Below, in pieces: positions 2,872 through 15,601 of a stretch of 33,230 bases of DNA. Source of the DNA: Acidobacteriota bacterium. GTDB taxonomy: Bacteria; Actinomycetota; Thermoleophilia; Miltoncostaeales; Miltoncostaeaceae. The position numbers were made by a program, and so were the translations under genes. Each line of letters opens with the position of its first letter. Positions within the stretch are counted from its first letter, which is position 1. The stretch spans positions 1 to 33,230 of the forward strand of contig JAGWYY010000003.1 in assembly GCA_018969105.1 (NCBI GenBank), in the 5' to 3' direction. The notes under the pieces are model-generated. The model did no database searches. It was not told the DNA's origin and was given only the letters and a program-made list of their open reading frames with translations.

Positions 2872-2956
2872 GATCTCCTCCTGTAACGGTGTTGGAACCC
2901 ACCTCATCTGCGGGGAATCCAACTCCCGGCCGTGCGACGGCCGCGTGGAGGTGCTG

Positions 2957-3673
2957 TTAGGGCTCGGTGAAGCCGGGGGGCTCCACCAGCGGGGCCAGAT
3001 CGGCCATCGCGGTGACCAGCGCCACGCGGGCCGGTGATGGTGCATCCGCCGCCAGCGGCAGCACCTGCCACTGCGTGCGGGTGAGGTAGGTGCCCGCCCA
3101 CCGGCGATGCTGGTCGCCCGTGCGCATGACGAGGGCCTGGATGCTGCGCAGGTTGTCCGAGCGATCTGCGATCTTGAGCAGGTGCGCATCCGGGGGCCCC
3201 TGTTCCAGAAGCCGGCGGTAGTAGTCGCGCACGGCATCCCCCGCCACGCGCGCGTCGGGCGCCGTGAGCCACACCACGAGGTTCTCGGTGCGCACGCCGA
3301 ATGCGCTGCGAATCTCCTCGGGCGTGGTGACGGTGTCCTCCACCACGTCGTGCAGCAGCGCCGCGGCGAGAACGTCTCGATCGGTAACTCCCCAGCGCAT
3401 GAGCCCGAGGGCCACGCGCACGGGGTGCAGCCAGTACGGGGTGTCGCTGCCGCGACGGGTCTGCCCCTCGTGCCGCTCGCGCTCGAAGGAATCGGCGCGC
3501 AGCAGGGTGCGGCGATCGGCGGCGGGGCGGGTGGCGAGGGCCTTCTCCCAGGCGTCCTCCACGTCGTCGGCGGTGTCGAAGTGCTCGGGCCAGGCCAGGT
3601 GCCGCGGGGCGATGGGCGCAAGCGCCTCCCCCGACTCACCAACGGACGGGGGTTCGAGCGGGCCGGTCGACAT
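2957..3673 (-). CDS. Stand-alone HD-domain (RelA/SpoT hydrolase-type) protein, putative small alarmone hydrolase
   Basis: YWLHPVRVALGLMRWGVTDRDVLAAALLHDVVEDT...HLLKIADRSDNLRS matches the HD/ED and D..N metal-site layout of RelA/SpoT/MESH1 hydrolases; no synthetase domain. Confidence 0.82.
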   Translation of the reverse strand: MSTGPLEPPSVGESGEALAPIAPRHLAWPEHFDTADDVEDAWEKALATRPAADRRTLLRADSFERERHEGQTRRGSDTPYWLHPVRVALGLMRWGVTDRDVLAAALLHDVVEDTVTTPEEIRSAFGVRTENLVVWLTAPDARVAGDAVRDYYRRLLEQGPPDAHLLKIADRSDNLRSIQALVMRTGDQHRRWAGTYLTRTQWQVLPLAADAPSPARVALVTAMADLAPLVEPPGFTEP

Positions 3674-3678
3674 GGGGT

Positions 3679-3687
3679 CTAGGGTAG
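3679..3687. promoter_or_regulatory. Bidirectional -10 core CTAGGGTAG: TACCCT (-) and TAGGGT (+)
   Basis: Near-perfect palindrome. The minus -10 (3681-3686) lies 7 nt from ATG at 3673; the plus -10 is 3680-3685. Confidence 0.55.
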
Positions 3688-3707
3688 CGCGGCCCGAGGC
3701 GGTCGCG

Positions 3708-5219
3708 GTGGACGCGCGTCGCCTCGCGGTGGTCGACCTGGGGTCGAACACGTTCCGGCTCGTGGTGTTCGAGTACCGGCCCGGTGGACCGTTCCGCCTC
3801 GTCGATGAGGTGCGCGAGGTGGTGCGCCTCACCGAGGGCTCGCCGCCCGGCGCGCCCATCGCCCCGGCGGCCCTCACCCGCGCGGCGCGCGTGGCGCGCC
3901 TGTTCGTCGGCTTCTGCCGGGGCTCGGAGATCGACGAGGTGCGGGCCGTGGCCACGAGCGCCATCCGCGACGCGCCGAACGGCGACGAGGTGCTGCAGGC
4001 GATCATCGATGCCGGGCTGCCCGCCCGCGTGGTCTCGGGCGAGGAGGAGGCCCGCTACGGCTACATCGGCGCGGTGAACGGCACCACGCTCACCGACGGG
4101 CTCGTGGCGGAACTCGGCGGCGGCAGCATCCAGGTGGGCCTGGTGGACGACCGCCAGCTCACGCGCTCGGTGAGCCACCCGCTGGGCGCCGTGCGCATGA
4201 CCGATGCGTACATGGCGGGCGACGTGCAGACCAAGGAGGACGTGCGGGCGGTGAGGCGCCATGCGCTCGAGGTGTTCCACGGCGATGCGTGGATCCCGGG
4301 GGCGAACCGGCTGGTGGCCATGGGCGGTGCGGTGCGCACGCTGGCCGCCATGGCGCAGAAGGCGTCGGGGTATCCGCTCGGCGAGGTGCACGGCTACCTG
4401 CTGGGTCGCGACGCGCTGCGGGAACTCATCGAGCAGATGACGGCCCTGCCGCGACGCGAGCGCAAGCGGATCGCCGGCCTCAAGGCCGATCGCGCCGACA
4501 TCATGCTGGCGGGCGCCGTGGTGCTGGACGCCCTCATGCAGGCCGCGGAGGTGGACCGCGTGGAGGTGTGCGCCGAGGGGCTTCGCTGGGGGGTGTTCTG
4601 GGAGGACTACCTCGCCCCGGCCGACCCCCCGCTGGTGGACGACGTGCGCGCGACCAGCGTGCGCGACCTGGCCCAGGTGTACGGCTACGACCGACCGCAC
4701 TGCGAGCAGGTGGCGCGCCTCGCGCTCGAGATCTTCGACGGCCTCGCGCGCCTCGGCGTGCACGACGGCGACCCGCGCGAGCGCGAATGGCTTCACGCCG
4801 CGGCACTGCTGCACGACGTCGGCACGCTCGTCGACTACAACGACCACCACAAGCACGGGCACTACCTGGTGCTGAACGCCGGGCTGCCCGGGTTCCGCCA
4901 CCGCGAGCTGGTGATCATCGCCCAGCTGGTGCGCGGCCACCGCAAGTCCATCCAGCCACCGGGGGCACTGGGCGCGCTGCTGAAGACCCGCGACGAGGAG
5001 CGCATCCTGCGGCTGGCCGCCTTCCTGCGCATCGCCGAGCAGCTCGAGGTGGGCCGCGAGCGCGCGATCACGGGGATCGACTGCGCGATATCCGGTGACC
5101 ATGTGACCCTGTGGCTGCGGGCCCACGGCGATGTGGACGTGGCCATGTGGTCGGCGCGCCAGGAGGCCGACATCTTCAAGAAGGCCACCGGGCGCCGGCT
5201 GGCGATCGAGCGCGCCTAG
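3708..5219 (+). CDS. ppx: Ppx/GppA exopolyphosphatase / pppGpp phosphohydrolase with C-terminal HD domain
   Basis: VVDLGSNTFRLVVFEY, VATSAIRDAPNG, VSGEEEARYGYIGAV, VAELGGGSIQVGLV, VAMGGAVRTLAAM, C-terminal HAAALLHDVGTLVDYNDHHKHGHYL. Start uncertain (GTG 3708 or ATG 3672, same frame). Confidence 0.92.
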   Translation: MDARRLAVVDLGSNTFRLVVFEYRPGGPFRLVDEVREVVRLTEGSPPGAPIAPAALTRAARVARLFVGFCRGSEIDEVRAVATSAIRDAPNGDEVLQAIIDAGLPARVVSGEEEARYGYIGAVNGTTLTDGLVAELGGGSIQVGLVDDRQLTRSVSHPLGAVRMTDAYMAGDVQTKEDVRAVRRHALEVFHGDAWIPGANRLVAMGGAVRTLAAMAQKASGYPLGEVHGYLLGRDALRELIEQMTALPRRERKRIAGLKADRADIMLAGAVVLDALMQAAEVDRVEVCAEGLRWGVFWEDYLAPADPPLVDDVRATSVRDLAQVYGYDRPHCEQVARLALEIFDGLARLGVHDGDPREREWLHAAALLHDVGTLVDYNDHHKHGHYLVLNAGLPGFRHRELVIIAQLVRGHRKSIQPPGALGALLKTRDEERILRLAAFLRIAEQLEVGRERAITGIDCAISGDHVTLWLRAHGDVDVAMWSARQEADIFKKATGRRLAIERA

Positions 5220-5234
5220 CCCGGGTCAGGCGGG

Positions 5235-5606
5235 CTATCCCCCGGCGATCTTCACGCGATACCGCTGCCCCAGATGCGCCGCCACCTTGTCGCGATGGTC
5301 GCCCTGCACCTCCACCACGCCGTCCTTCACGGCGCCCCCCGATCCGCACAGGCGCTTCAGGTCGCGGGCGATGTCCCCGAGGTCGGCGGGCGGCAGCCCC
5401 GTGACCAGCGTGACCGTCTTTCCCTTGCGCCCGGCCTTGGTACGCGAGACGCGCACGATGCCGTCCGGGCTCCCGGGCGAAGGTGATCCCTGCGACCCCT
5501 GCCGGGACGACCCGCCATCGCGCGCGGTCGCATCGTCGATGCGCCCGGCCTCGCTGGAGTAGACCGCGCGGGCGTTATCGCCCATGTCCCGTCGGATGCG
5601 TCCCAT
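5235..5606 (-). CDS. SUI1/YciH-family translation initiation factor-like protein
   Basis: VRVSRTKAGRKGKTVTLVTGLPPADLGDIARDLKRLCGSGGAVKDGVVEVQGDHRDKVAAHLGQRYRVKIAGG is a SUI1 domain; N-terminal extension of uncertain start. Confidence 0.88.
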   Translation of the reverse strand: MGRIRRDMGDNARAVYSSEAGRIDDATARDGGSSRQGSQGSPSPGSPDGIVRVSRTKAGRKGKTVTLVTGLPPADLGDIARDLKRLCGSGGAVKDGVVEVQGDHRDKVAAHLGQRYRVKIAGG

Positions 5607-5616
5607 CGCGTGGCCG

Positions 5617-5626
5617 ATGGTACCGT
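5617..5626. promoter_or_regulatory. Overlapping divergent -10 boxes TACCAT (-) / TACCGT (+) sharing GGTACC
   Basis: ATGGTACCGT; starts at 5606 (-) and 5636 (+) are 10 and 9 nt away. Confidence 0.5.
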
Positions 5627-5635
5627 CGGCCGCCA

Positions 5636-6472
5636 ATGGCGCACGACCTGCACGTCCACACGAATCGGTCCGATGGGTCGCACGACCCGGCCGAGCTCGT
5701 GGAGTACGCGGCAGAGCGCGGCGTGGAGGTGCTGGCCATCACCGACCATGACACCATGGCCGGCGTGGCCGAGGCCGACGCCGCCGGGCGGGCCATCGGG
5801 GTGACGGTGATCCCGGGCATCGAGCTGTCGATCAAGGTGCCCCACGGCAGCATGCACCTGCTCGGATACTTCACCGAACCGGCGCCCGAACCGCTTGCCG
5901 GCCTGATCGCCGGCTTCGGCGAGACACGCGTGGAGCGCGCGAAGGAGATGGTGGACCGCCTCAACGACATGGGCGTGCCCCTCGACTGGCAGGACGTGCT
6001 CGACGGGGCCGCGGGTGCCCCCCTGGGGCGTCCGCACATCGCCGAGGCGCTCATGCGCGCGGGCCACGTGTCGGAGCGCAAGGAGGCCTTCGACCTCTAC
6101 CTGGGCGATGGACGGCCTGCGTACGTGGGATCGGACGGGCTGGGGGTGGAGGAGGGCATCACCCTGGTGCGCGAGTCCGGTGGGGCCCCCGTGCTGGCCC
6201 ACCCGTACACCCTGAGGCTCGACGACGCGCACCTCGACCCCTTCGTGGGGCGCCTGGCGCAGGCCGGGCTCGCGGGCATCGAGGTGCACCGGCCCGAGTA
6301 CTCCCCCGACCAGTACGCCACCTACGGGGCGCTCGCGCGCAAGTACGGACTCATCCCGTCTGGGGGGTCCGACTACCACCGGCCCACCAGCCCCCATCAC
6401 CCGGGCGCCACCGGTAATCCACCCCTCCCGGAGGAGACGGTCGACCGCCTCATCGCGGCCGCGCTGGGCTAA
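5636..6472 (+). CDS. PHP-domain metal-dependent phosphoesterase
   Basis: MAHDLHVHTNRSDGSHDPAELVEYAAERGVEVLAITDHDTMAGV...VIPGIELSI...PVLAHPY...GGSDYH: PHP motifs. Confidence 0.92.
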   Translation: MAHDLHVHTNRSDGSHDPAELVEYAAERGVEVLAITDHDTMAGVAEADAAGRAIGVTVIPGIELSIKVPHGSMHLLGYFTEPAPEPLAGLIAGFGETRVERAKEMVDRLNDMGVPLDWQDVLDGAAGAPLGRPHIAEALMRAGHVSERKEAFDLYLGDGRPAYVGSDGLGVEEGITLVRESGGAPVLAHPYTLRLDDAHLDPFVGRLAQAGLAGIEVHRPEYSPDQYATYGALARKYGLIPSGGSDYHRPTSPHHPGATGNPPLPEETVDRLIAAALG

Positions 6473-6482
6473 CGTCAGCCGC

Positions 6483-8273
6483 ATGACGACGACCGATTCC
6501 GCACCGCGCGCCGAGGGCGTCCGCTGGGACCTCTCCCCCCTCTGCGCATCCGCCGACGACTGCCGTGATCGCCTCGCGAAGGTGCTCGACGACTGCCGCG
6601 CCTTCGAGTCCCGCTACCGGGGCACGGTGGCCGGCATGGACGGCGAAACCCTTGCCGGGGCGCTTGCCGAGATGGCCCGCATCGAGAACGAGATCGGACG
6701 GCTCTACTCGTACGCCTCGCTGCGCGAGTCGGTGGACGTGACCGACCCCGAGAACCAGGACCTCGACTCGCTCATGGACCGCTCGATGGTGGAGGCGTCG
6801 AACGCCCTGCGCTTCTTCGAGCTCGAGTGGCTCGCGCTCGACGAGGACGTCGCCGACCGCCTGGCGAACGCCCCCGAGGTGGCGGCCGACCGGCATCACC
6901 TGGTCTCGGCCCGCCGCTTCAAGCGCCACACGCTCACCGAGCCCGAGGAGCGCATGCTCGCCGAGCGCAGCCCGGCCGCCGCGAGCGCGTGGCAGACGCT
7001 CTTCGGTCGCATCACCTCCACGCTCGAGGCCGAGTTCGACTCCGGCGACGGCATGGAGCCCCATACGATCGACCGCCTGCTCGCCTGCGTGCGCAACCCC
7101 GACCGCGACCTCCGCTTCCGCGCCCTCGACACCCTCTACGCGACCCTCGGCCCGCACTCCCCCACCCTCGCCCACTGCTACGACACCCTCGTGGGCGACC
7201 GCCTGGCCATGGACCGCCTGCGCCACTACGACGACCCCATGGACCCGACGCACCTGCGCAACGAGGTGCCCGGGCCTGCCGTGGAGTCGATGATGTCCTC
7301 GGTGGAACTGCATTACGGGCTGGCCCAGCGGTGGTTCCGGGTGAAGGCCCGCCTGCTCGGCCTCGACACCCTCCACCTGGCCGACCAGTACGCCCCGCTC
7401 GGCGAGGCCCGCCAGGTGCTCTTCCCGGAGGCCCGCGGCATCATCGGCGCGTCGTTCCGCGCATTCTCGCCCCGTATCGGCGACATCGCCGACGGCTTCT
7501 TCGAGGAGGAGCGCATCGACGCCGAGCCGCGCGCCGGCAAGCGCGGTGGTGCCTTCTGCGCGTCGGTGGCCCAGGACGCCCGGCCGTTCATGCTCATGAA
7601 CTACACCGACCGCATGGACGACGTGATGACCCTCGCCCACGAGCTCGGCCACGGCATGCACTTCACGCTGTCGTCCGAGCGCCAGACGGCGCTGTCGTAC
7701 CACACGGGCCTGGCACTGGCGGAGGTGCCCTCCACGTTCGCCGAGATCATCGCGTTCGACCACCTCATGGCCACCGAGCAGGACGAGGCCACGCGCACGG
7801 CGCTGGTGTGCGAGCGCGTGGAGGGTTCATTCGCCACGGTGTTCCGCCAGACGGTGCTGGCGCGCTACGAGCAGGACGCCTATGCGATGCGCTCGGAGGG
7901 CACCACGCTCACCGACGACCGCCTCTCGGAGATCTGGATCGCCCGCAACGCCGCGTACTACGGCGACGCCATGGAGCTCCCCGAGGGCTACGGCCTCGGC
8001 TGGTCGTACATCCCGCACTTCATCTCCACGCGCTTCTACACCTACGCATACGTGTTCGCGCACCTCGTCACGCTCGCGCTCTACGCCCGCTACCGCGAGG
8101 ACGGCGACGACTTCGTGCCGCGCTACCTCGACTTCCTGGCCGCCGGTGGATCGGCCGCGCCGGCCGACCTCCTGCGCCCGCTGGGCGTGGACCTCACGGA
8201 CCCCTCGTGCTGGGACCCGGGCTTCCGCGAGATGGAGCGCATGGTCGAGCGCGCTGAGCAGATGACCGGGTAG
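6483..8273 (+). CDS. pepF: M3 family oligoendopeptidase F-like metallopeptidase
   Basis: Zinc motif LAHELGHGMHF; M3 oligoendopeptidase layout (RWDLSPLCAS..., YHTGLALAEVPSTFAEI, YIPHFISTRFYTYAYVF). Confidence 0.93.
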   Translation: MTTTDSAPRAEGVRWDLSPLCASADDCRDRLAKVLDDCRAFESRYRGTVAGMDGETLAGALAEMARIENEIGRLYSYASLRESVDVTDPENQDLDSLMDRSMVEASNALRFFELEWLALDEDVADRLANAPEVAADRHHLVSARRFKRHTLTEPEERMLAERSPAAASAWQTLFGRITSTLEAEFDSGDGMEPHTIDRLLACVRNPDRDLRFRALDTLYATLGPHSPTLAHCYDTLVGDRLAMDRLRHYDDPMDPTHLRNEVPGPAVESMMSSVELHYGLAQRWFRVKARLLGLDTLHLADQYAPLGEARQVLFPEARGIIGASFRAFSPRIGDIADGFFEEERIDAEPRAGKRGGAFCASVAQDARPFMLMNYTDRMDDVMTLAHELGHGMHFTLSSERQTALSYHTGLALAEVPSTFAEIIAFDHLMATEQDEATRTALVCERVEGSFATVFRQTVLARYEQDAYAMRSEGTTLTDDRLSEIWIARNAAYYGDAMELPEGYGLGWSYIPHFISTRFYTYAYVFAHLVTLALYARYREDGDDFVPRYLDFLAAGGSAAPADLLRPLGVDLTDPSCWDPGFREMERMVERAEQMTG

Positions 8274-8322
8274 AACCCCCGCGCGGGTAGCGCGCCCACC
8301 CTCTTCCGGGTAGCGTTGTCCT

Positions 8323-11300
8323 ATGCCCCCTCCCCCCGCCATGACCCCGCGTACCCGGAATCGCCGTGCCCGGCGTGCCCGTCCCGCCTCGCTGCTCGCC
8401 GCCGTCGGGCTCCTCCTCGCCAGTAGCGGCGTCGCGACCGCCGCCACCTCGGCGGCCGGAAACCCCACCGTCTCGGGCGCCCCCGATGCCACGATCGCCG
8501 CCAGCTACATCGGCCCGAACGCCGGCAGCGGCGCGCCATCGGCGCTCGTGGTGGGCCCCGGACGCGAGGCGGCCCTGACCCTGGGAATCGCCTACGACGC
8601 CGTGGAGCAGCACGACGGGCCCATCACGGTGAACGTGACCCTCCCGGGTGGCCTCGAGATGGTGCGCACCAAGACGATCCTCCCCGACGCGCTCGATCAG
8701 GGCGCTGCGTGGACGTGCGCCCCCGGCGCGCCCACCATCACGTGCACGCTCGCCCGCGCCGATGGCCAGGGCGCGTACACGCTGTCGCCCGACACCTCGG
8801 CACAGCTCGTGATGGTGGTGCGCGGCACCGACCAGGTGCCCGCCGTGGCCGACGGCGCCCCCCCGGTGGCGCTGGCCGACGTGAAGGCCGACCTCAATGT
8901 GCCGTTCGGCGGTGTCGTGCCGGCGCTCACCTCGAGCACCACGGTGCCCGTGCAGGCCGCCAGCGGGTCATTCGCCCCGCGCATCGTGGTGAGCAAGGTG
9001 CTCCGCCCGAGCGCCGAGCCGGGCAACCCGGCCACGTGGGATGGCTACGACCTGCTGGTGCACAACGTGGGCGCCAGCCCTGCCCGGACAGGCAGCGGGC
9101 ATCCGGCCGTCACCCTCTCGAAGGTCCTCCCGCCGTTGCGCGTGAAGGGCATCACGATCTCCGGTGCCGGGTGGTCGTGCACCCGCGCCGACAGGGGAAC
9201 CTGCCGCTTGAGCCGACGCATCGACGTGGGCGACACGGCGAGCGTCATCAAGGTGCGCTGGCGATCCATGCACGACACGGCGAAGATCGACACCTCGTGG
9301 ACGAGCAATGGCGTCGCGGGCTTCGCCGGGGCGCTCACGGCCTCTGAGGTGCCCGCAGGCGCGCTGCCGCCGCCGGGGACCGTCCCGTTCACGGCGAACA
9401 TGCAGCTCAACTTCGTCGACACCGTGGTGAACCTCGACGTCCACGCCGCGGCGCCGGAGGGCATCGAGGTGCTCTCAGGCGGCAAGCCGACCCCGCTGAA
9501 GGGCCGGATCAGCAACACCGGCGACACCTTCGCCCACGTCGTGGGCCTGCGCGTCACCGTGCCGAAGGGCGTGCTGGTGTCGATCCCCACGCCCGGCTGG
9601 AAGTGCCCGGGGACGAGCGGCGTCGTGATCTGCCGGTTCAGCGCGCACCTCAAGGCCAAGGCGTCCGCCCCGTTCGACCTCCTCCTCTCGGCTCCGCTGG
9701 GGCAGCCCGCCGCCCAGGGCAGGCTCCAGATCGTGCCGATCGGCCGCCAGGACGCCGTGCGCGGCGCCACCCGGAACGTGGCGCTGGCGGTCCTGGATCC
9801 GGGCGATCCGCAGGCCACGCCGCAGGTGTTCTTCCTCAACGGCGCCAAGTGGGAGCGCTGGGTTGATGGCGGTACCCACCGCGTGCCCGCGCTCGATGAC
9901 TTCACCTATCGCATCGCCCTGTTCAACAGCGGCGGCGACGTGCTGCAGCCCGGCACGTCGGTGCAGGTGACCCAGGCGATCGGATCGGCGATGGCCCTGA
10001 AGGCCGTCAACCCCGGCCCCGGCATCACGTGCGCCCAGGGCGGGCAGGTGTCGTGCACCCTCACGACCACGCAGCCCGTCCAGCCGGACCAGTCGTTCGG
10101 CGACATCCTGGTCACCGTCAACCCCAGTTCACCCGACCCCACGGCCAACCTCGGCCCCGTGGTGGCCACGGTCGCCGGGCAGCGCGGCAGCGAGCGGCTT
10201 CCCATGAACGTCGAGGTGACCGACAACCCCAACTCACTGCGCCCGTCGATGAAGGTGACGCAGGAGCCCACCGCCGGTGGAGTGGGACGCATCTCGATGG
10301 TGCTTCGCAACGACGGCCGCGAACCCGTGACGGGCCTGTCGGCCACTGGCACGCTGCCCGCCGGCCTCGCGATGACCCGCGTCACCGCCCCCGCAGGATG
10401 GTCGTGCGCCACCAGCGGGCGGGCGGGCGTGAAGTGCGCGTACCGCCATGGCCTGAAGGGCGGCGCACGCACGCCCGGCGTGGTGCTTCAGGTTGCCGCG
10501 GCGCGGGGCCAGGCGGCGAGCCGCAATGACATGACATGGCGCGCCGCCGGTCGCGCCTCCGATGGCACGCGCCAGGCGGGTCTGCGCCGGGGCCCGGTGC
10601 CGATCCGCGGGCCCATCACGGCCAGCGCCAAGGTGACGCCCTCGGTGGTGAGCGCCGTGACCGAGATGACCACCGAGCACCGCCGCGTATCGCTCGACGG
10701 ATCGACCAGCGCCGGCAACGGGATCTCGCTCGACTACAAGTGGACCCAGCGCTGCACCACGCCGGCCGACGCCGCCAAGGTGCCGTCGTGCCGCGGGCAG
10801 GTGGCCCCGGTCGCCGCCATCGACTCACCCTCCCTGCCGTCCACCCACGCCGTGCTGCCGCTGGTGCGCACGCGCACCCGCTTCACCTTCGAACTGGCCA
10901 TCACCGACGGCAGTGCCACGTCCACCCGCACCGTCACGGCGACCGAGGCCGTGCCCGTGAAGGCGTCGAAGGCCACGAAGCGTTCGACGGGCCTGAGCCC
11001 CGCTGACGCCGCCGCGCGGGCTGCGATCACGCGCAACCAGCGCGGCGCTGCGGCCGCACGCCGCAGCGCCGCGCGTGGCGCCACCGCCGGCCGCCGGAGC
11101 GCGGCGTCCACGAATGCCCGCAACGCCCGGGCGGCGCGGTCGACCACGCCCCGCGTGCGCATCGCGGACGGCCCCATCATCACGGCCCAGCCGGGAACCA
11201 GCGTGACCCTCAACGCGCGGCTCCAGGGCCGCTGGACCGGCGAGGTGACCTACCAGTGGACGCAGGTCTCCGGCCGCGCCGGCGCGCTCTCGGGCACGAG

Positions 11301-14300
11301 CGGTGGCCAGGTGCGTGCGCGGGCGCCGGACACTCCGGGCCGCATCGTCGTGCGGGTTCGTGCACGCGATGCAGTGGGTCACGTGGCGAGCGGCCAGGTG
11401 ATCGTCAACGCCGGCAAGGCCGGGTCGCCCCAGGCGGCCGCGGTCATGGCCAGCGCCGCGCGTGCGGCAAGCAGCGGCAAGCCCCTCAACGTCTCCCTCC
11501 CGGGCGGCAACACCGCCACGCTGAAGCGCCTGCGTGCCATGCGGGGCGGCATGGCGGTGTCCAACCAGGCCGACGCGGCGTATGCCTTCAACGGCTCCGA
11601 GCTCAAGGTCGGCCAGGTGTCGATCACCGGGGCGAGCGGCAACGTGAGCATCACGGGCATCCAGCTCGACTCGGGCACCCTCACGTTCCCGGCAGCGTGG
11701 AAGATCGGCCCCCTGTCGGTGGTGAAGGGCAAGTCCCTCGTCTACACGTTCGCGAGCGGCGACGACCCGTCGACGCTGGTCGGGCAGGTCGAGGACTCCA
11801 CGCACTTCGCGTTCCTCACGCTGCCCACCGGCTGGGCGGGTACCACCACCGTCACTTTCGCCAAGGACTCCTGGAGCGTCGAGGCCACCGCGGTAGGCGA
11901 CAAGGGCGGCAAGGTCGTCGTCGACGGCACCGCGAAGCAGGACGGCACCTACTCGGCCTCGGTCACCGGCACGCAGATCGCGACCTTCGAGGGCGTCACC
12001 CTCGACATGTCGGGAACCATCACGAAGGCGGCGCCGGACAAGGACGCCACCACCACCGTGACTGGGTCGATCGCCGAGCCGGTCTCCCTTGGCGACGGGG
12101 TGCGCCTCGAGTCGCTCACCGCCAAGTGGACGCCCGACGTCAAGGACGGCCCGGTGCTCACCGGGGCGGCGAGCATCAGCATCGACAGCGGCGCGGCCAC
12201 GCCCCTCACCATCGACGCCGCGCTGAAGTACACGGGCGCGAACGACTGGTCGGTGGAGCTGAGCGGCTCCGGCGGGCCCTCCTGGAACCCCCTGCCGGGC
12301 CTCTCGCTTTCGGCGTCCAACCTGACCGGCTCGGTCGGCATGGAGAAGGGCGAGAAGAAGTGGAACGTCACCGGCAAGGTGGCCAGCTGGCAGGTGTCCA
12401 GCATCCTCACGCTGTCCGACGTCCAGATCGACCTGACGAATGACTGCGGCGACGGCACGCAGCCCGCGTGCCCCAAGGGCGAACTGTTCCTGAAGCTGGG
12501 CACCACCGCGCGCCTGGCGCCCCCGGTGATCCAGCCGATCACCATGAAGACGCAGGCGATCCTCGGACTGGGCGACGGTGGTGGATTCGCCCTCTACGCC
12601 ACCATGCCCAACCTCACCCTCGGGCCGGGCGTGGAGTTGGGCAGCCCCACGCTGAACGTGACGTACAACATGCCCGACGAGCTGCTCCCCAGCAGCGTCG
12701 GCATGCCCTCCTTCAGCCTGCCGAAGGGCCTCAACGGCGGCTTCGACATCCAGGCCATCGGCTCCCTCAAGGTGCCGGGCCTGGGCGACTTCGGCTCGAT
12801 CGTCTCGATGATCACCCCGAAGGGCTGGACGCTCGGCGGCTTCGACCTCGACGGCGTGTCACTTGGATCGGGCAACGGGTCGCAGTCGAGCGCCTGGTTC
12901 GGGTGGTCGTCGTTCGACACCACCATGAGCGTCAACATGCCGGGCATCGGCGTCAGGTCGATCCCGGTTCCGAAGGACTCCTTCGCCGTCACGGGTGACT
13001 ACTCGGCGCCCGGGTGGTTCACGAAGATGGTCGGGATGGAGTCGGCCCACGCGGTGGGCACCATCAACTTCGACGCGGGCACCGGCTTCTTCAGCGCCAA
13101 GATCGCGTTCGACGGCAGCTACACGCTGCCCGGCGGCGGCTCGAGCCTGCAGTCGACGTCGGTCTTCTTCGACCTCCAGAACAACGCCTCGGGCATCACC
13201 GTGGCCGTGGGCGGCACCACCACCCTGGGCGTGCAGGGCATGGACGCCAATGGGCAGCAGGTCGCCGCGCCGCAGCTGGACATGCGCCTGGGCTTCGACC
13301 TGACCAGCCAGACCGTGTCGGCGTCGCTCACGTTCACCGATCCCGCCGGGTGGCAGGACGCCTTCGGCGTGGACGGCCTGGTGATCAACCAGGCGTCGTT
13401 CACGCTCGAGGTCAACGTCGTCACCCTCACGCCGGGCCTCAAGCTGATGGCGCAGGGGCAACTGCCATCCAGCGTGGCCGGGCCGTTGCAGGTGCCCGGC
13501 CAGGGGATCCCCATCAAGGTGGGGGCCGAGCTCTCCGCCGCGCATCCGTGCGTGGACTTCCAGGTGGGCAACCCCAAGGGCACGCAGCCCGTGCTCCAGG
13601 TGGGCGGCGGCGTGGCGTCCGCCAACTTCTTCGAGTTCATCCTGGCGCCCAGCGGTTGCCAGCTCTCCCCCCTCTCCCCGGCCATCCCGCCCGGCTTCTC
13701 GATTGCATTCGATGGCCAGGTGCTGGGTGCGACGGTAGACGTGGGCGCGACCCTCGAGATCGCGCCGAAGATGAAGCTCGACGCGCACGTCAACATCGGC
13801 GCCTTCAAGCTGGGCGGCGTCCAGTTCGAGAAGACCACCCTCCAGGTGAAGCTCGACGAGGGCACGGGCGTCAATGAGGTCTCGTTCTCGGGTGGGTTCA
13901 CCATCTTCGGGAACGGCGTCAACGTGGCGGGGAGCCTCAAGCAGGACGGCACCACCACATCCGCGTCGCTCGACGTGCAGCAGGTGGGCCAGATCTCGGT
14001 CGACGGCTTCACGCTCGAGGACATGCGCTTCCACGCGGCCGTGCAGGTCGGCCCATCCGTGAACAAGGTGGCCATCTCCGCCGGCGGCAAGGTGAACATC
14101 CTCGGGCAGATGCTCGACGTCAAGCAGTTCTCCGTGTCGATCGACAACGGCGTGGTGGAGGACGTGTCGTTCGACGTCCAGGCGAAGATCAACATCAATG
14201 ACGTGGCCACGGCCGACGGTGAGTTCAAGATGAGCTACACCGAATCGTCCGGCGACTTCCAGTTGCACGCCTCAGTGGCCCTCTCCACCGCGGCCGGGTT

Positions 14301-15543
14301 CAGCATCGGCACCCCGGCGAAGCCCGCCACCCTCGACATCTCACCGCAGTGCGCCGCGTTCGAGGGGTCCATCCAGATGGGCCAGGTGTTCACGGCCACC
14401 CTCTCGGGCACGTTCGCGTATGCCGACGGCTGCGCCCAGACCGTGCGGACGGTCGATGGCCAGCAGGTCGCGGCCAAGAAGGGTGACTTCAGCATCGCCG
14501 CCGACAACGTGGCCCTGCAGCTCGGTGTCTTCGAGACCACCGGCTCGGTGGCCATCGGCGACGTCGGCGGAACCGCGTACGCCACCGTCAAGGCCTCCCT
14601 CAGGCTCGGATCCCAGGACGCCGGGGGCGACGTCAGCGTGGCCGGCTCGTTCCAGAGCAATGGCGACTTCACGTTCGACGGCTCGGGCAACCTGGCCCTC
14701 GCAGGATTCACCCTCAACACCGCCGTGCACGTGTCCAACAAGGGCGGCAATGTCGACGTGTCCGGGCGCGCGACCCTCGACATCGTCGGCACCCAGGTGG
14801 AGATCAGCGGCCAGTTCACCGAGATCAACGGCGCGCCGTCCACCACGCTGCGCGGTGCCATCAACAACCTGTCGCTCGGGGGCTTCAGCGTCGGCAAGGC
14901 CGAGGTCACCCTCACGCAGACACCAACCGAGGTGGGCGTCGACGCTGCCGTGGACATGACGGTGGGCGACGCCGCCACCGGACAGCTGCACGCCGACGGC
15001 ACCATCTCGTTCGTCGAGGGGGCTGCCACCGACGGCGTGCCGCTCTTCTACGCCTCGCTCAACGGCAACATGGGCTTCCCGTCCATCGGCGCCACGATGA
15101 CGGGCAACGTGACGTTCTCCAACTGCACCGCCAACTGCACGCAGCCGGCGCCGGTCCAGTTCTCCCTGCACGGCGCGATCGGCACCGGCGGGTTCCAGTT
15201 CGTGACCGACGTGAACATGTCCTCAGATGGAAAATTCGAGGCCTCCGCGGTGTTCAACAGCAGCGCCTGCACGGGCACCGTGAACCTCCTGATCGTCCAG
15301 GCGCAGGGGTGCTTCTCCTTCAACGTGAACCTGTGGGTCGGCAGCCGCGCGCCGTACGGCTCGCTGTCCGCCACGGCCAGCGCGAACATCAACATCCAGT
15401 ACTGGGACGCATCGCCGTGGTACGCCCCCTGGAGATGGACCTGGGGTTCATGGCGCTCCTACGGGGTGAGCCTGAGCGCCAGCATCCAGTTGTCGCCCTT
15501 CAGGATCTGCATGGGCGTTCTGGGCAAGGATCTCTGCGTGTAG
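8323..15543 (+). CDS. Very large (2406 aa) secreted protein: signal peptide, DUF11/Ig-like repeats, Arg/Ala-rich linker, PKD/Ig-like domain, long repetitive beta-strand region, Cys/aromatic C-terminus
   Basis: N-terminus RNRRARRARPASLLAAVGLLLASSGVATAATSA looks like a Sec signal; repeated ...GWSCTR.../...GITCAQGG...VSCTLTTTQP DUF11-like units; VTLNARLQGRWTGEVTYQWTQVSG PKD/Ig-like; C-terminal repeats such as ISVDGFTLEDMRFHAAVQV and LALAGFTLNTAVHVSNKGGNVDVSGRATLDI. No LPxTG or C-terminal TM seen. Confidence 0.88.
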   Translation: MPPPPAMTPRTRNRRARRARPASLLAAVGLLLASSGVATAATSAAGNPTVSGAPDATIAASYIGPNAGSGAPSALVVGPGREAALTLGIAYDAVEQHDGPITVNVTLPGGLEMVRTKTILPDALDQGAAWTCAPGAPTITCTLARADGQGAYTLSPDTSAQLVMVVRGTDQVPAVADGAPPVALADVKADLNVPFGGVVPALTSSTTVPVQAASGSFAPRIVVSKVLRPSAEPGNPATWDGYDLLVHNVGASPARTGSGHPAVTLSKVLPPLRVKGITISGAGWSCTRADRGTCRLSRRIDVGDTASVIKVRWRSMHDTAKIDTSWTSNGVAGFAGALTASEVPAGALPPPGTVPFTANMQLNFVDTVVNLDVHAAAPEGIEVLSGGKPTPLKGRISNTGDTFAHVVGLRVTVPKGVLVSIPTPGWKCPGTSGVVICRFSAHLKAKASAPFDLLLSAPLGQPAAQGRLQIVPIGRQDAVRGATRNVALAVLDPGDPQATPQVFFLNGAKWERWVDGGTHRVPALDDFTYRIALFNSGGDVLQPGTSVQVTQAIGSAMALKAVNPGPGITCAQGGQVSCTLTTTQPVQPDQSFGDILVTVNPSSPDPTANLGPVVATVAGQRGSERLPMNVEVTDNPNSLRPSMKVTQEPTAGGVGRISMVLRNDGREPVTGLSATGTLPAGLAMTRVTAPAGWSCATSGRAGVKCAYRHGLKGGARTPGVVLQVAAARGQAASRNDMTWRAAGRASDGTRQAGLRRGPVPIRGPITASAKVTPSVVSAVTEMTTEHRRVSLDGSTSAGNGISLDYKWTQRCTTPADAAKVPSCRGQVAPVAAIDSPSLPSTHAVLPLVRTRTRFTFELAITDGSATSTRTVTATEAVPVKASKATKRSTGLSPADAAARAAITRNQRGAAAARRSAARGATAGRRSAASTNARNARAARSTTPRVRIADGPIITAQPGTSVTLNARLQGRWTGEVTYQWTQVSGRAGALSGTSGGQVRARAPDTPGRIVVRVRARDAVGHVASGQVIVNAGKAGSPQAAAVMASAARAASSGKPLNVSLPGGNTATLKRLRAMRGGMAVSNQADAAYAFNGSELKVGQVSITGASGNVSITGIQLDSGTLTFPAAWKIGPLSVVKGKSLVYTFASGDDPSTLVGQVEDSTHFAFLTLPTGWAGTTTVTFAKDSWSVEATAVGDKGGKVVVDGTAKQDGTYSASVTGTQIATFEGVTLDMSGTITKAAPDKDATTTVTGSIAEPVSLGDGVRLESLTAKWTPDVKDGPVLTGAASISIDSGAATPLTIDAALKYTGANDWSVELSGSGGPSWNPLPGLSLSASNLTGSVGMEKGEKKWNVTGKVASWQVSSILTLSDVQIDLTNDCGDGTQPACPKGELFLKLGTTARLAPPVIQPITMKTQAILGLGDGGGFALYATMPNLTLGPGVELGSPTLNVTYNMPDELLPSSVGMPSFSLPKGLNGGFDIQAIGSLKVPGLGDFGSIVSMITPKGWTLGGFDLDGVSLGSGNGSQSSAWFGWSSFDTTMSVNMPGIGVRSIPVPKDSFAVTGDYSAPGWFTKMVGMESAHAVGTINFDAGTGFFSAKIAFDGSYTLPGGGSSLQSTSVFFDLQNNASGITVAVGGTTTLGVQGMDANGQQVAAPQLDMRLGFDLTSQTVSASLTFTDPAGWQDAFGVDGLVINQASFTLEVNVVTLTPGLKLMAQGQLPSSVAGPLQVPGQGIPIKVGAELSAAHPCVDFQVGNPKGTQPVLQVGGGVASANFFEFILAPSGCQLSPLSPAIPPGFSIAFDGQVLGATVDVGATLEIAPKMKLDAHVNIGAFKLGGVQFEKTTLQVKLDEGTGVNEVSFSGGFTIFGNGVNVAGSLKQDGTTTSASLDVQQVGQISVDGFTLEDMRFHAAVQVGPSVNKVAISAGGKVNILGQMLDVKQFSVSIDNGVVEDVSFDVQAKININDVATADGEFKMSYTESSGDFQLHASVALSTAAGFSIGTPAKPATLDISPQCAAFEGSIQMGQVFTATLSGTFAYADGCAQTVRTVDGQQVAAKKGDFSIAADNVALQLGVFETTGSVAIGDVGGTAYATVKASLRLGSQDAGGDVSVAGSFQSNGDFTFDGSGNLALAGFTLNTAVHVSNKGGNVDVSGRATLDIVGTQVEISGQFTEINGAPSTTLRGAINNLSLGGFSVGKAEVTLTQTPTEVGVDAAVDMTVGDAATGQLHADGTISFVEGAATDGVPLFYASLNGNMGFPSIGATMTGNVTFSNCTANCTQPAPVQFSLHGAIGTGGFQFVTDVNMSSDGKFEASAVFNSSACTGTVNLLIVQAQGCFSFNVNLWVGSRAPYGSLSATASANINIQYWDASPWYAPWRWTWGSWRSYGVSLSASIQLSPFRICMGVLGKDLCV
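13792..15020 (+). repeat. Degenerate protein repeats in the C-terminal part of the giant protein
   Basis: Eye-alignable units: NIGAFKLGGVQFEKTTLQVKLDEGTGVNEVSFSGGFTIFGNGVNVAGSL; QVGQISVDGFTLEDMRFHAAVQVGPSVNKVAISAGGKVNILGQMLDVKQF; GSGNLALAGFTLNTAVHVSNKGGNVDVSGRATLDIVGTQVEISGQF; AINNLSLGGFSVGKAEVTLTQTPTEVGVDAAVDMTVGDAATGQL. Confidence 0.55.
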
Positions 15544-15571: not shown

Positions 15572-15601
15572 ACAAGGGCCGCCCGGAAGGGCGGCCCTTG
15601 T
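15572..15601. terminator. Strong hairpin after the giant gene (bidirectional terminator)
   Basis: CAAGGGCCGCCC-GGAA-GGGCGGCCCTTG, perfect 12-bp stem with tetraloop, plus one more A-T pair, between convergent genes. Confidence 0.85.

What the first reader, a model, noticed from the sequence alone, without database searches (positions are those of the whole stretch)
8323..15543. 2406-aa secreted repeat protein of unknown function, about 22% of the window
One uninterrupted ORF encodes a signal peptide, several DUF11/Ig-like units, an Arg/Ala-rich linker, a PKD/Ig-like domain and about 1300 aa of glycine-punctuated beta-strand repeats (e.g. ISVDGFTLEDMRFHAAVQV, LALAGFTLNTAVHVSNKGGNVDVSG, LSLGGFSVGKAEVTLTQ). 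It ends in a Trp/Tyr-rich, Cys-containing segment (NINIQYWDASPWYAPWRWTWGSWRSYGVSLSASIQLSPFRICMGVLGKDLCV). I see no sortase signal or C-terminal TM, so attachment to the cell is unexplained. Alternating hydrophobic strands with repeated GF/GG turns recall extended beta-groove (AsmA-like) or beta-solenoid architectures. This is inference only, but such a protein outside the membrane of an apparently monoderm lineage would be new. It has its own leaderless promoter and a strong terminator, so it is a monocistronic unit.
Basis: partly seen in the sequence, partly recalled or inferred. Interest (0 to 1): 0.72.

Follow-up and report, generated by a model that had tools for sequence, protein, structure and literature searches.

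The report
Giant secreted beta-ribbon protein, lake actinobacteria
A lake-dwelling actinobacterium secretes a giant, 2,400-residue protein of a widespread but uncatalogued family whose second half is predicted to be one very long, nearly arginine-free beta-ribbon with a greasy face, a shape otherwise seen in lipid-handling proteins, though its actual job is still unknown.

Summary
The ORF is real and correctly placed (8323-15543, 2406 aa). It belongs to a conserved family under purifying selection that no searched family library covers. Full-length collinear relatives occur in Thermoleophilia (freshwater Miltoncostaeales-type MAGs, often two per genome) and in Acidimicrobiales (C-module 30% identical). 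Six Ig-like modules, one disulfide pair each, lead through a polybasic linker (net +15) and a PKD domain into a 1,326-aa C-module with no Pfam, NCBIfam, PHROG or PDB sequence match. Twenty-four cysteines form 12 local pairs; in distant homologues pairs are lost mostly together, pointing to an oxidised extracellular protein. AlphaFold2 gives an all-beta meander of about 65 amphipathic strands; about 60-aa four-strand repeats are confirmed by profile self-comparison. Nearest folds are generic: ApoB100 belt, LptD, ushers, porins; none superposes globally. The genome has no sortase or Omp85 hit. The gene is accessory: relatives have a clean empty site after pepF, and a paralogue sits in a variable island with a two-component system, ferric-reductase-like proteins and ApbE. 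Best reading: an accessory cell-surface attachment/hydrophobic-contact protein. An ApoB-like lipid belt is possible but unproven; AsmA/TamB membership is not supported.

The parts
8323..15543 (+). Whole gene, 2406 aa secreted protein (ATG 8323; a second in-frame ATG at 8341)
8311..8316 (+). TAGCGT, -10-like element 7 nt before the start codon (possible leaderless promoter)
   Evidence: sequence; not found by the consensus scan; inference only
8323..8448 (+). Signal peptide (residues 1 to about 42)
   Evidence: sequence inspection; no predictor run
8503..10953 (+). Six Ig-like modules (residues about 61-877), five DUF11-like with the GW-x-C...C hairpin and one PKD-like; Cys pairs 132/141, 286/294, 428/437, 570/578, 695/705, 811/823
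10954..11154 (+). Arg/Ala-rich polybasic linker, residues 878-944, net charge +15
11188..11406 (+). PKD domain, residues 956-1028
   Evidence: PF22352 E 1.4e-7; 12 of 12 homologues
11563..15540 (+). C-module, residues 1081-2406: acidic (net -48), nearly Arg-free, about 65 amphipathic antiparallel beta-strands
13798..15024 (+). Region of clear internal repeats, units of about 55-60 aa / four strands (residues 1826-1876, 1888-1944, 2056-2114, 2116-2171, 2178-2234)
15385..15540 (+). W/Y-rich C-terminal cap, residues 2355-2406, ending in the Cys pair 2396/2405
15573..15600 (+). Terminator-like hairpin, 12-bp stem, GGAA loop

Best explanation
The gene encodes a Sec-exported, disulfide-stapled accessory cell-surface protein of a previously uncatalogued Actinomycetota family. 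The basic N-terminal half (six Ig-like modules plus the +15 linker) acts as a stalk that holds the protein on the anionic cell wall without sortase, lipid or membrane anchor. The 1,326-residue acidic C-module is one long antiparallel beta-meander with a continuous hydrophobic face; it is the outward working part and mediates attachment, by binding a hydrophobic surface or ligand through that face or by packing it into a rigid rod. Shown here: the gene, family, collinear architecture, cysteine pairing pattern, repeats, one-faced strands, gain/loss as a single gene. Predicted only: the meander fold. Inferred only: electrostatic wall retention, orientation, attachment function.
For: Purifying selection. 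Full-length collinear homologues in two classes. Twelve local cysteine pairs, usually gained or lost as pairs in distant homologues, the signature of disulfides in an exported protein. PKD and DUF11-like Ig modules, which are typical of surface proteins (general knowledge). Strand alternation 2.65 versus 1.20 +- 0.11 in shuffles, one face V/L/A/F/G/I and the other S/T/D/Q/N/K; 21 of 24 scorable hairpins keep the hydrophobic face on one side. AlphaFold2 pLDDT 81 for residues 1782-2406. Arg 1.0% in the C-module versus 8.3% in the other window proteins, and 1 Arg in about 1,194 residues in group b. Patchy distribution with clean empty sites after pepF means a dispensable, niche-type function. No sortase and no Omp85 hit in the genome.
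Against: No localisation or binding data. Wall retention by the linker is a guess; the linker is only +7 in group b and is not R/A-rich in the Acidimicrobiales homologue. pTM is 0.37 and 0.52, so the overall shape is unknown. No known adhesin domain in the C-module. Group b/c1 copies sit beside a redox cassette rather than adhesion genes.
Confidence: 0.5

Rival explanations
1. Lipid-binding belt or groove: the hydrophobic face is open and holds lipid or hydrocarbon, as the amphipathic beta-belt of apolipoprotein B or a repeating-beta-groove bridge does, so the protein carries or scavenges extracellular lipids.
For: The best PDB fold matches of both models are ApoB100 (E 7e-8 and 7e-6, probability 1.00) and LptD, both lipid-interfacing antiparallel sheets. 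One face is hydrophobic over about 65 strands.
Against: TM-scores are only 0.06-0.33 with rmsd about 20-54 A, and porins and ushers match nearly as well, so the match says only 'long antiparallel amphipathic sheet'. Beta-sandwiches and closed rods have one-faced strands too. No lipid-metabolism neighbours. Patchy presence argues against a core envelope lipid function.
Confidence: 0.2
2. Passive structural surface layer or shield: the protein is a spacer or coat against predators and phages, without a specific ligand.
For: Large, acidic, nearly Arg-free, disulfide-rich, accessory, up to two or three paralogues per genome.
Against: Strong purifying selection on the C-module, stronger than on the N-half (dN 0.21 versus 0.40), and invariant residues across genera are unexpected for a passive, fast-evolving coat.
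Confidence: 0.15
3. Part of an extracytoplasmic redox/sensing island: the b/c1 paralogues work with the adjacent histidine kinase/response regulator, ferric-reductase-like membrane proteins and ApbE flavin transferase, and the window copy is a relocated paralogue.
For: Orthologues of the kinase and of ApbE occur in the same 9 of 20 genus genomes; the big gene is next to the kinase in 8 of these 9, plus G077 which keeps a kinase remnant; no such copy was found in the kinase-negative genomes.
Against: The window copy and the c2 copies are not beside this cassette. G077 keeps the big gene after losing most of the cassette, and G009 has the kinase without the big gene beside it. No flavin- or metal-binding motif was seen. 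Co-inheritance of an island does not prove joint function.
Confidence: 0.1
4. AsmA/TamB-like envelope lipid bridge.
For: Long antiparallel beta architecture with a hydrophobic face.
Against: No AsmA, TamB or chorein profile hit in any of 20 members; cleavable signal and Ig stalk instead of an N-terminal membrane helix and chorein domain; four-strand instead of five-strand repeat (RBG definition in PMC12066543); no outer membrane target.
Confidence: 0.03

Closest known systems
Large secreted Ig/DUF11/PKD-repeat surface proteins of bacteria
   Same: Signal peptide, array of Ig-like modules with one disulfide each, PKD domain, very large size, no catalytic domain
   Different: More than half of the protein is a C-module with no known domain, nearly Arg-free, and no sortase, LPXTG, SLH or membrane anchor
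Apolipoprotein B-100 amphipathic beta-belt (PDB 9e9r, 9ea7, 9bde)
   Same: Best fold match; long antiparallel one-faced beta-sheet following a globular N-terminal part
   Different: No sequence similarity beyond 7-10% in the fold alignment, TM at most 0.33, no LLTP/vitellogenin N-terminal domain, lipid binding untested
Repeating-beta-groove / AsmA-TamB lipid bridges
   Same: Long open antiparallel beta-sheet with hydrophobic interior
   Different: No chorein domain, no membrane helix, about 60-aa four-strand repeat, disulfides, extracellular Ig stalk, apparently monoderm host
LptD / usher / porin beta-barrels
   Same: Amphipathic 10-15-residue strands joined by tight turns
   Different: No Omp85 insertase and no outer membrane expected; 65 strands with no barrel closure shown

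Membership tests
AsmA/TamB/RBG superfamily | AsmA, TamB or chorein sequence profile | tested here: not met
   No such hit in 20 members against Pfam-A at E <= 1 or in P0001
AsmA/TamB/RBG superfamily | Repeat of five antiparallel strands ending in a loop (PMC12066543) | tested here: not met
   Repeat units of about 55-60 aa, four strands in the predicted model
AsmA/TamB/RBG superfamily | Hydrophobic groove that carries lipid | not testable with these tools
   One face is hydrophobic but groove geometry and lipid were not resolved
ApoB / large lipid transfer proteins | Sequence homology to LLTP N-terminal domain | tested here: not met
   No vitellogenin/LLTP profile in Pfam scans of whole homologues
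ApoB / large lipid transfer proteins | Amphipathic beta-belt on a lipid core | tested here: inconclusive
   Fold match E 7e-8 but TM at most 0.33
Sortase-anchored surface proteins | LPXTG-type signal and a sortase in the genome | tested here: not met
   No sortase hit in the assembly (94% complete), which rings in 3 control genomes; no such C-terminus
Outer-membrane beta-barrels | Omp85 machinery / outer membrane | tested here: not met
   No Omp85 hit in the assembly, rings in 7 control genomes
DUF11/PKD-containing secreted proteins | PKD and DUF11-like modules behind a signal peptide | tested here: met
   PF22352 in 12 of 12; DUF11 in 4 of 12 at E <= 0.1, best 3.2e-5; six Cys-paired modules
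Bacterial adhesins | Binding to a surface or cell | not testable with these tools
   No ligand-binding domain recognised

The most novel reading that the evidence does not exclude
The C-module is an extracellular, bacterial counterpart of the ApoB belt: a roughly 65-strand, one-faced beta-ribbon (about 30 nm if laid flat) that wraps or carries lipid or hydrocarbon outside monoderm cells, in a family spread over two classes of Actinomycetota.
Probability: 0.15. Interest if true: 0.85.

Novelty: new variant of a known kind. Interest (0 to 1): 0.55.

Why it matters
It defines a domain family of over 1,300 residues that no curated library searched here describes, although it is conserved over two classes of Actinomycetota, including freshwater lineages with small genomes. 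A secreted protein with a continuous hydrophobic beta face in cells without an outer membrane poses a clear biophysical question (open lipid-binding ribbon or closed adhesive rod) that one purified construct could settle. The near absence of arginine in a 72% GC genome, and presence/absence as a single gene, make it a tractable marker of surface variation in uncultured lake bacteria.

Tried and rejected
Peptide-pattern search of genome contigs with the single protein found nothing, whereas the alignment-based search did. Phage and plasmid tblastn: none. PHROGs: none. Viral-contig searches gave no answer twice. The genome search with the whole protein failed twice and worked with the C-module. 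Viral structure library: only weak, poorly superposing matches (best a phage tail-fibre fragment, E 1.3e-7, TM 0.2). PDB phmmer hits to ubiquitin-conjugating enzymes at E 0.2-1 are noise. NCBIfam 'Lsa19 adhesin' at E 0.079, 12.7 bits against a cut-off of 250, is noise. Beta-solenoid rejected: DSSP shows antiparallel hairpins, 33 of 43 inter-strand gaps at most 4 residues. Literature searches for the family or clade found nothing relevant.

Full report
1. The window is the complete contig C64 of a 1.87-Mb, 94%-complete assembly in 198 contigs with 72% GC. The ORF 8323-15543 encodes 2406 aa, has a strong codon-position GC bias and evolves under purifying selection: dN/dS 0.29/0.84 against the nearest orthologue, with the C-module (0.21/0.76) more constrained than the N-half (0.40/0.93). 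Upstream lies pepF (stop 8271-8273), downstream a gene for an acidic protein on the other strand; a 12-bp hairpin at 15573-15600 follows the stop (-39 kcal/mol, z -5.8) and group-a orthologues have a hairpin at the same place with different stem sequences. A TAGCGT element 7 nt before the ATG fits a leaderless start, but no consensus promoter is detected. The unit is plausibly monocistronic.

2. The host. Homologue records are MAGs titled Thermoleophilia, Miltoncostaeales, Gaiellales or 'uncultured actinobacterium' from lake and estuary samples; I infer a Miltoncostaeales-type freshwater lineage. The assembly gives no sortase hit and no Omp85 hit, while both families ring in control genomes, so an apparently monoderm host and the lack of sortase anchoring are supported; the assembly is only 94% complete.

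3. A family, not an orphan. The C-module finds homologues in the same genus at 72%, 55% and 49% identity, often two per genome, then at 39-42% in another family of the class, in a third family, and at 29-30% in Acidimicrobiales; weaker relatives occur in other Actinomycetota as parts of roughly 970-3,600-aa frames. In a sample, 23 of 299 genomes of the class and 7 of 398 of the phylum are positive. The tree separates the window copy (with L024-L026) from the own-genome paralogue at C125 (with L029/L032), both with full support. Length is preserved: 1,205 versus 1,200 residues at 30% identity. The Ig region also aligns over 776 of 817 positions in the Acidimicrobiales homologue (22% identity; its PKD part aligns poorly), so nearly the whole architecture is ancient.

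4. Anatomy. Residues 61-877 contain six Ig-like modules, each marked by one close cysteine pair; DUF11 is sub-threshold here but significant in homologues. Residues 878-944 are a polybasic linker (net +15; +7 to +16 in orthologues). A PKD domain follows (956-1028). The C-module (1081-2406) has no Pfam, NCBIfam, PHROG or PDB sequence relative. All 24 cysteines form 12 local pairs. Pairs 2010/2037 (L042), 2316/2330 (L042 and L022) and 2396/2405 (L036) are each lost together; the exception is 2272, lost without 2268 in L036 and L039. I read this as disulfide bonding, hence export. The C-module is acidic (net -48) and nearly free of arginine: 13 in 1,326 residues here and 1 in 1,194 in group b, against 8.3% Arg in the other proteins of the window.

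5. Structure. HMM self-alignment shows real internal repeats (97.8% and 95.4% probability), and an iterated repeat model finds five units of about 55-60 aa between 1826 and 2234, against weak hits in shuffled controls. AlphaFold2 on 20 sequences gives an all-beta model of residues 1207-2406 (pLDDT 72.6, pTM 0.37), and of 1782-2406 with pLDDT 81.1, pTM 0.52. In the larger model 65 strands of at least 7 residues average 11.4 residues; their family-averaged hydropathy alternates far beyond shuffles (2.65 versus 1.20 +- 0.11, maximum of 2,000 shuffles 1.57). In 21 of 24 scorable hairpins the hydrophobic face stays on the same side. This is what a continuous antiparallel meander predicts; it does not by itself separate an open ribbon from closed sandwiches or rods. 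Foldseek ranks ApoB100, LptD, ushers and porins first, at TM at most 0.33 and rmsd of about 20 A or more, so only the local architecture is matched, not a fold.

6. Genomics of gain and loss. In genus members without the window-type copy, pepF is followed within about 14 to 120 bp by the downstream flank of the window: a precise empty site, so the roughly 7.3-kb segment with this single gene comes or goes. The b/c1 paralogues lie elsewhere, in several genomes next to groES/groEL, tail-to-tail with a histidine kinase/response regulator and near ferric-reductase-like and ApbE genes. Kinase and ApbE orthologues occur in the same 9 of 20 genus genomes; the big gene adjoins the kinase in 8 of these and in G077, which keeps only a kinase remnant; G009 has the kinase without it. 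That is an island, and a hint of function for those paralogues; the window copy is outside it. Draft assemblies limit these absence calls.

7. Mechanism. I commit to an accessory cell-surface attachment/hydrophobic-contact protein: Ig stalk and polybasic linker on the wall side, acidic beta-ribbon as the outward working part (confidence 0.5). Shown: gene, family, architecture, repeats, cysteine pattern, gain/loss. Predicted: meander fold. Inferred: wall retention, orientation, ligand class. The lipid-belt reading (0.2, with the stronger ApoB-like form at 0.15) is the most interesting one not excluded. AsmA/TamB membership fails on profile, repeat type and domain order; similarity of mechanism stays untested.

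8. Novelty. Large Ig/PKD surface proteins are a known kind; this is a new variant because its larger half is an undescribed domain family with unusual composition and a predicted fold with no good global match.

Noticed in passing
L011 4953-12113 and flanks; L018, L019, L020, L021, L029, L116, L014: Variable island: paralogue of the big gene tail-to-tail with a histidine kinase/response regulator, plus two ferric-reductase-like membrane proteins and ApbE; kinase and ApbE orthologues occur in the same 9 of 20 genus genomes.
   Followed up: partly
residues 1081-2406 of the window protein; group b homologues L027, L028, L029, L032: Near-total loss of arginine (1 Arg in about 1,194 residues in group b) in genomes of about 72% GC, while the N-half of the window protein keeps 7.5% Arg; no explanation found.
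   Followed up: partly
L019 2684-6904 (-): Another giant secreted protein (1407 aa, eight DUF11 units) next to groEL in one genome carrying the paralogue.
   Followed up: no
L081 86-6304 (G098:C4): A distant third paralogue, 2073-aa open frame, sharing only the middle of the C-module and continuing into a D-G-D-rich C-terminus that looks FG-GAP-like by eye; no Pfam hit.
   Followed up: partly
L030, L035, L039 record titles: Three MAG records are titled 'Bifidobacterium breve' but carry close relatives of this Thermoleophilia family (up to 72% identity); the public labels are probably wrong.
   Followed up: no
L088 (G235:C84) 2934-8456: A 1841-aa frame made of repeats of roughly 90 aa related to the GDF...GxVxxGxVG segment of the C-module, in a different family of the class.
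   Followed up: no
L117 (G077:C73) about 5024-5660: Natural deletion that removed most of the kinase, the response regulator and ApbE but kept the big gene.
   Followed up: partly
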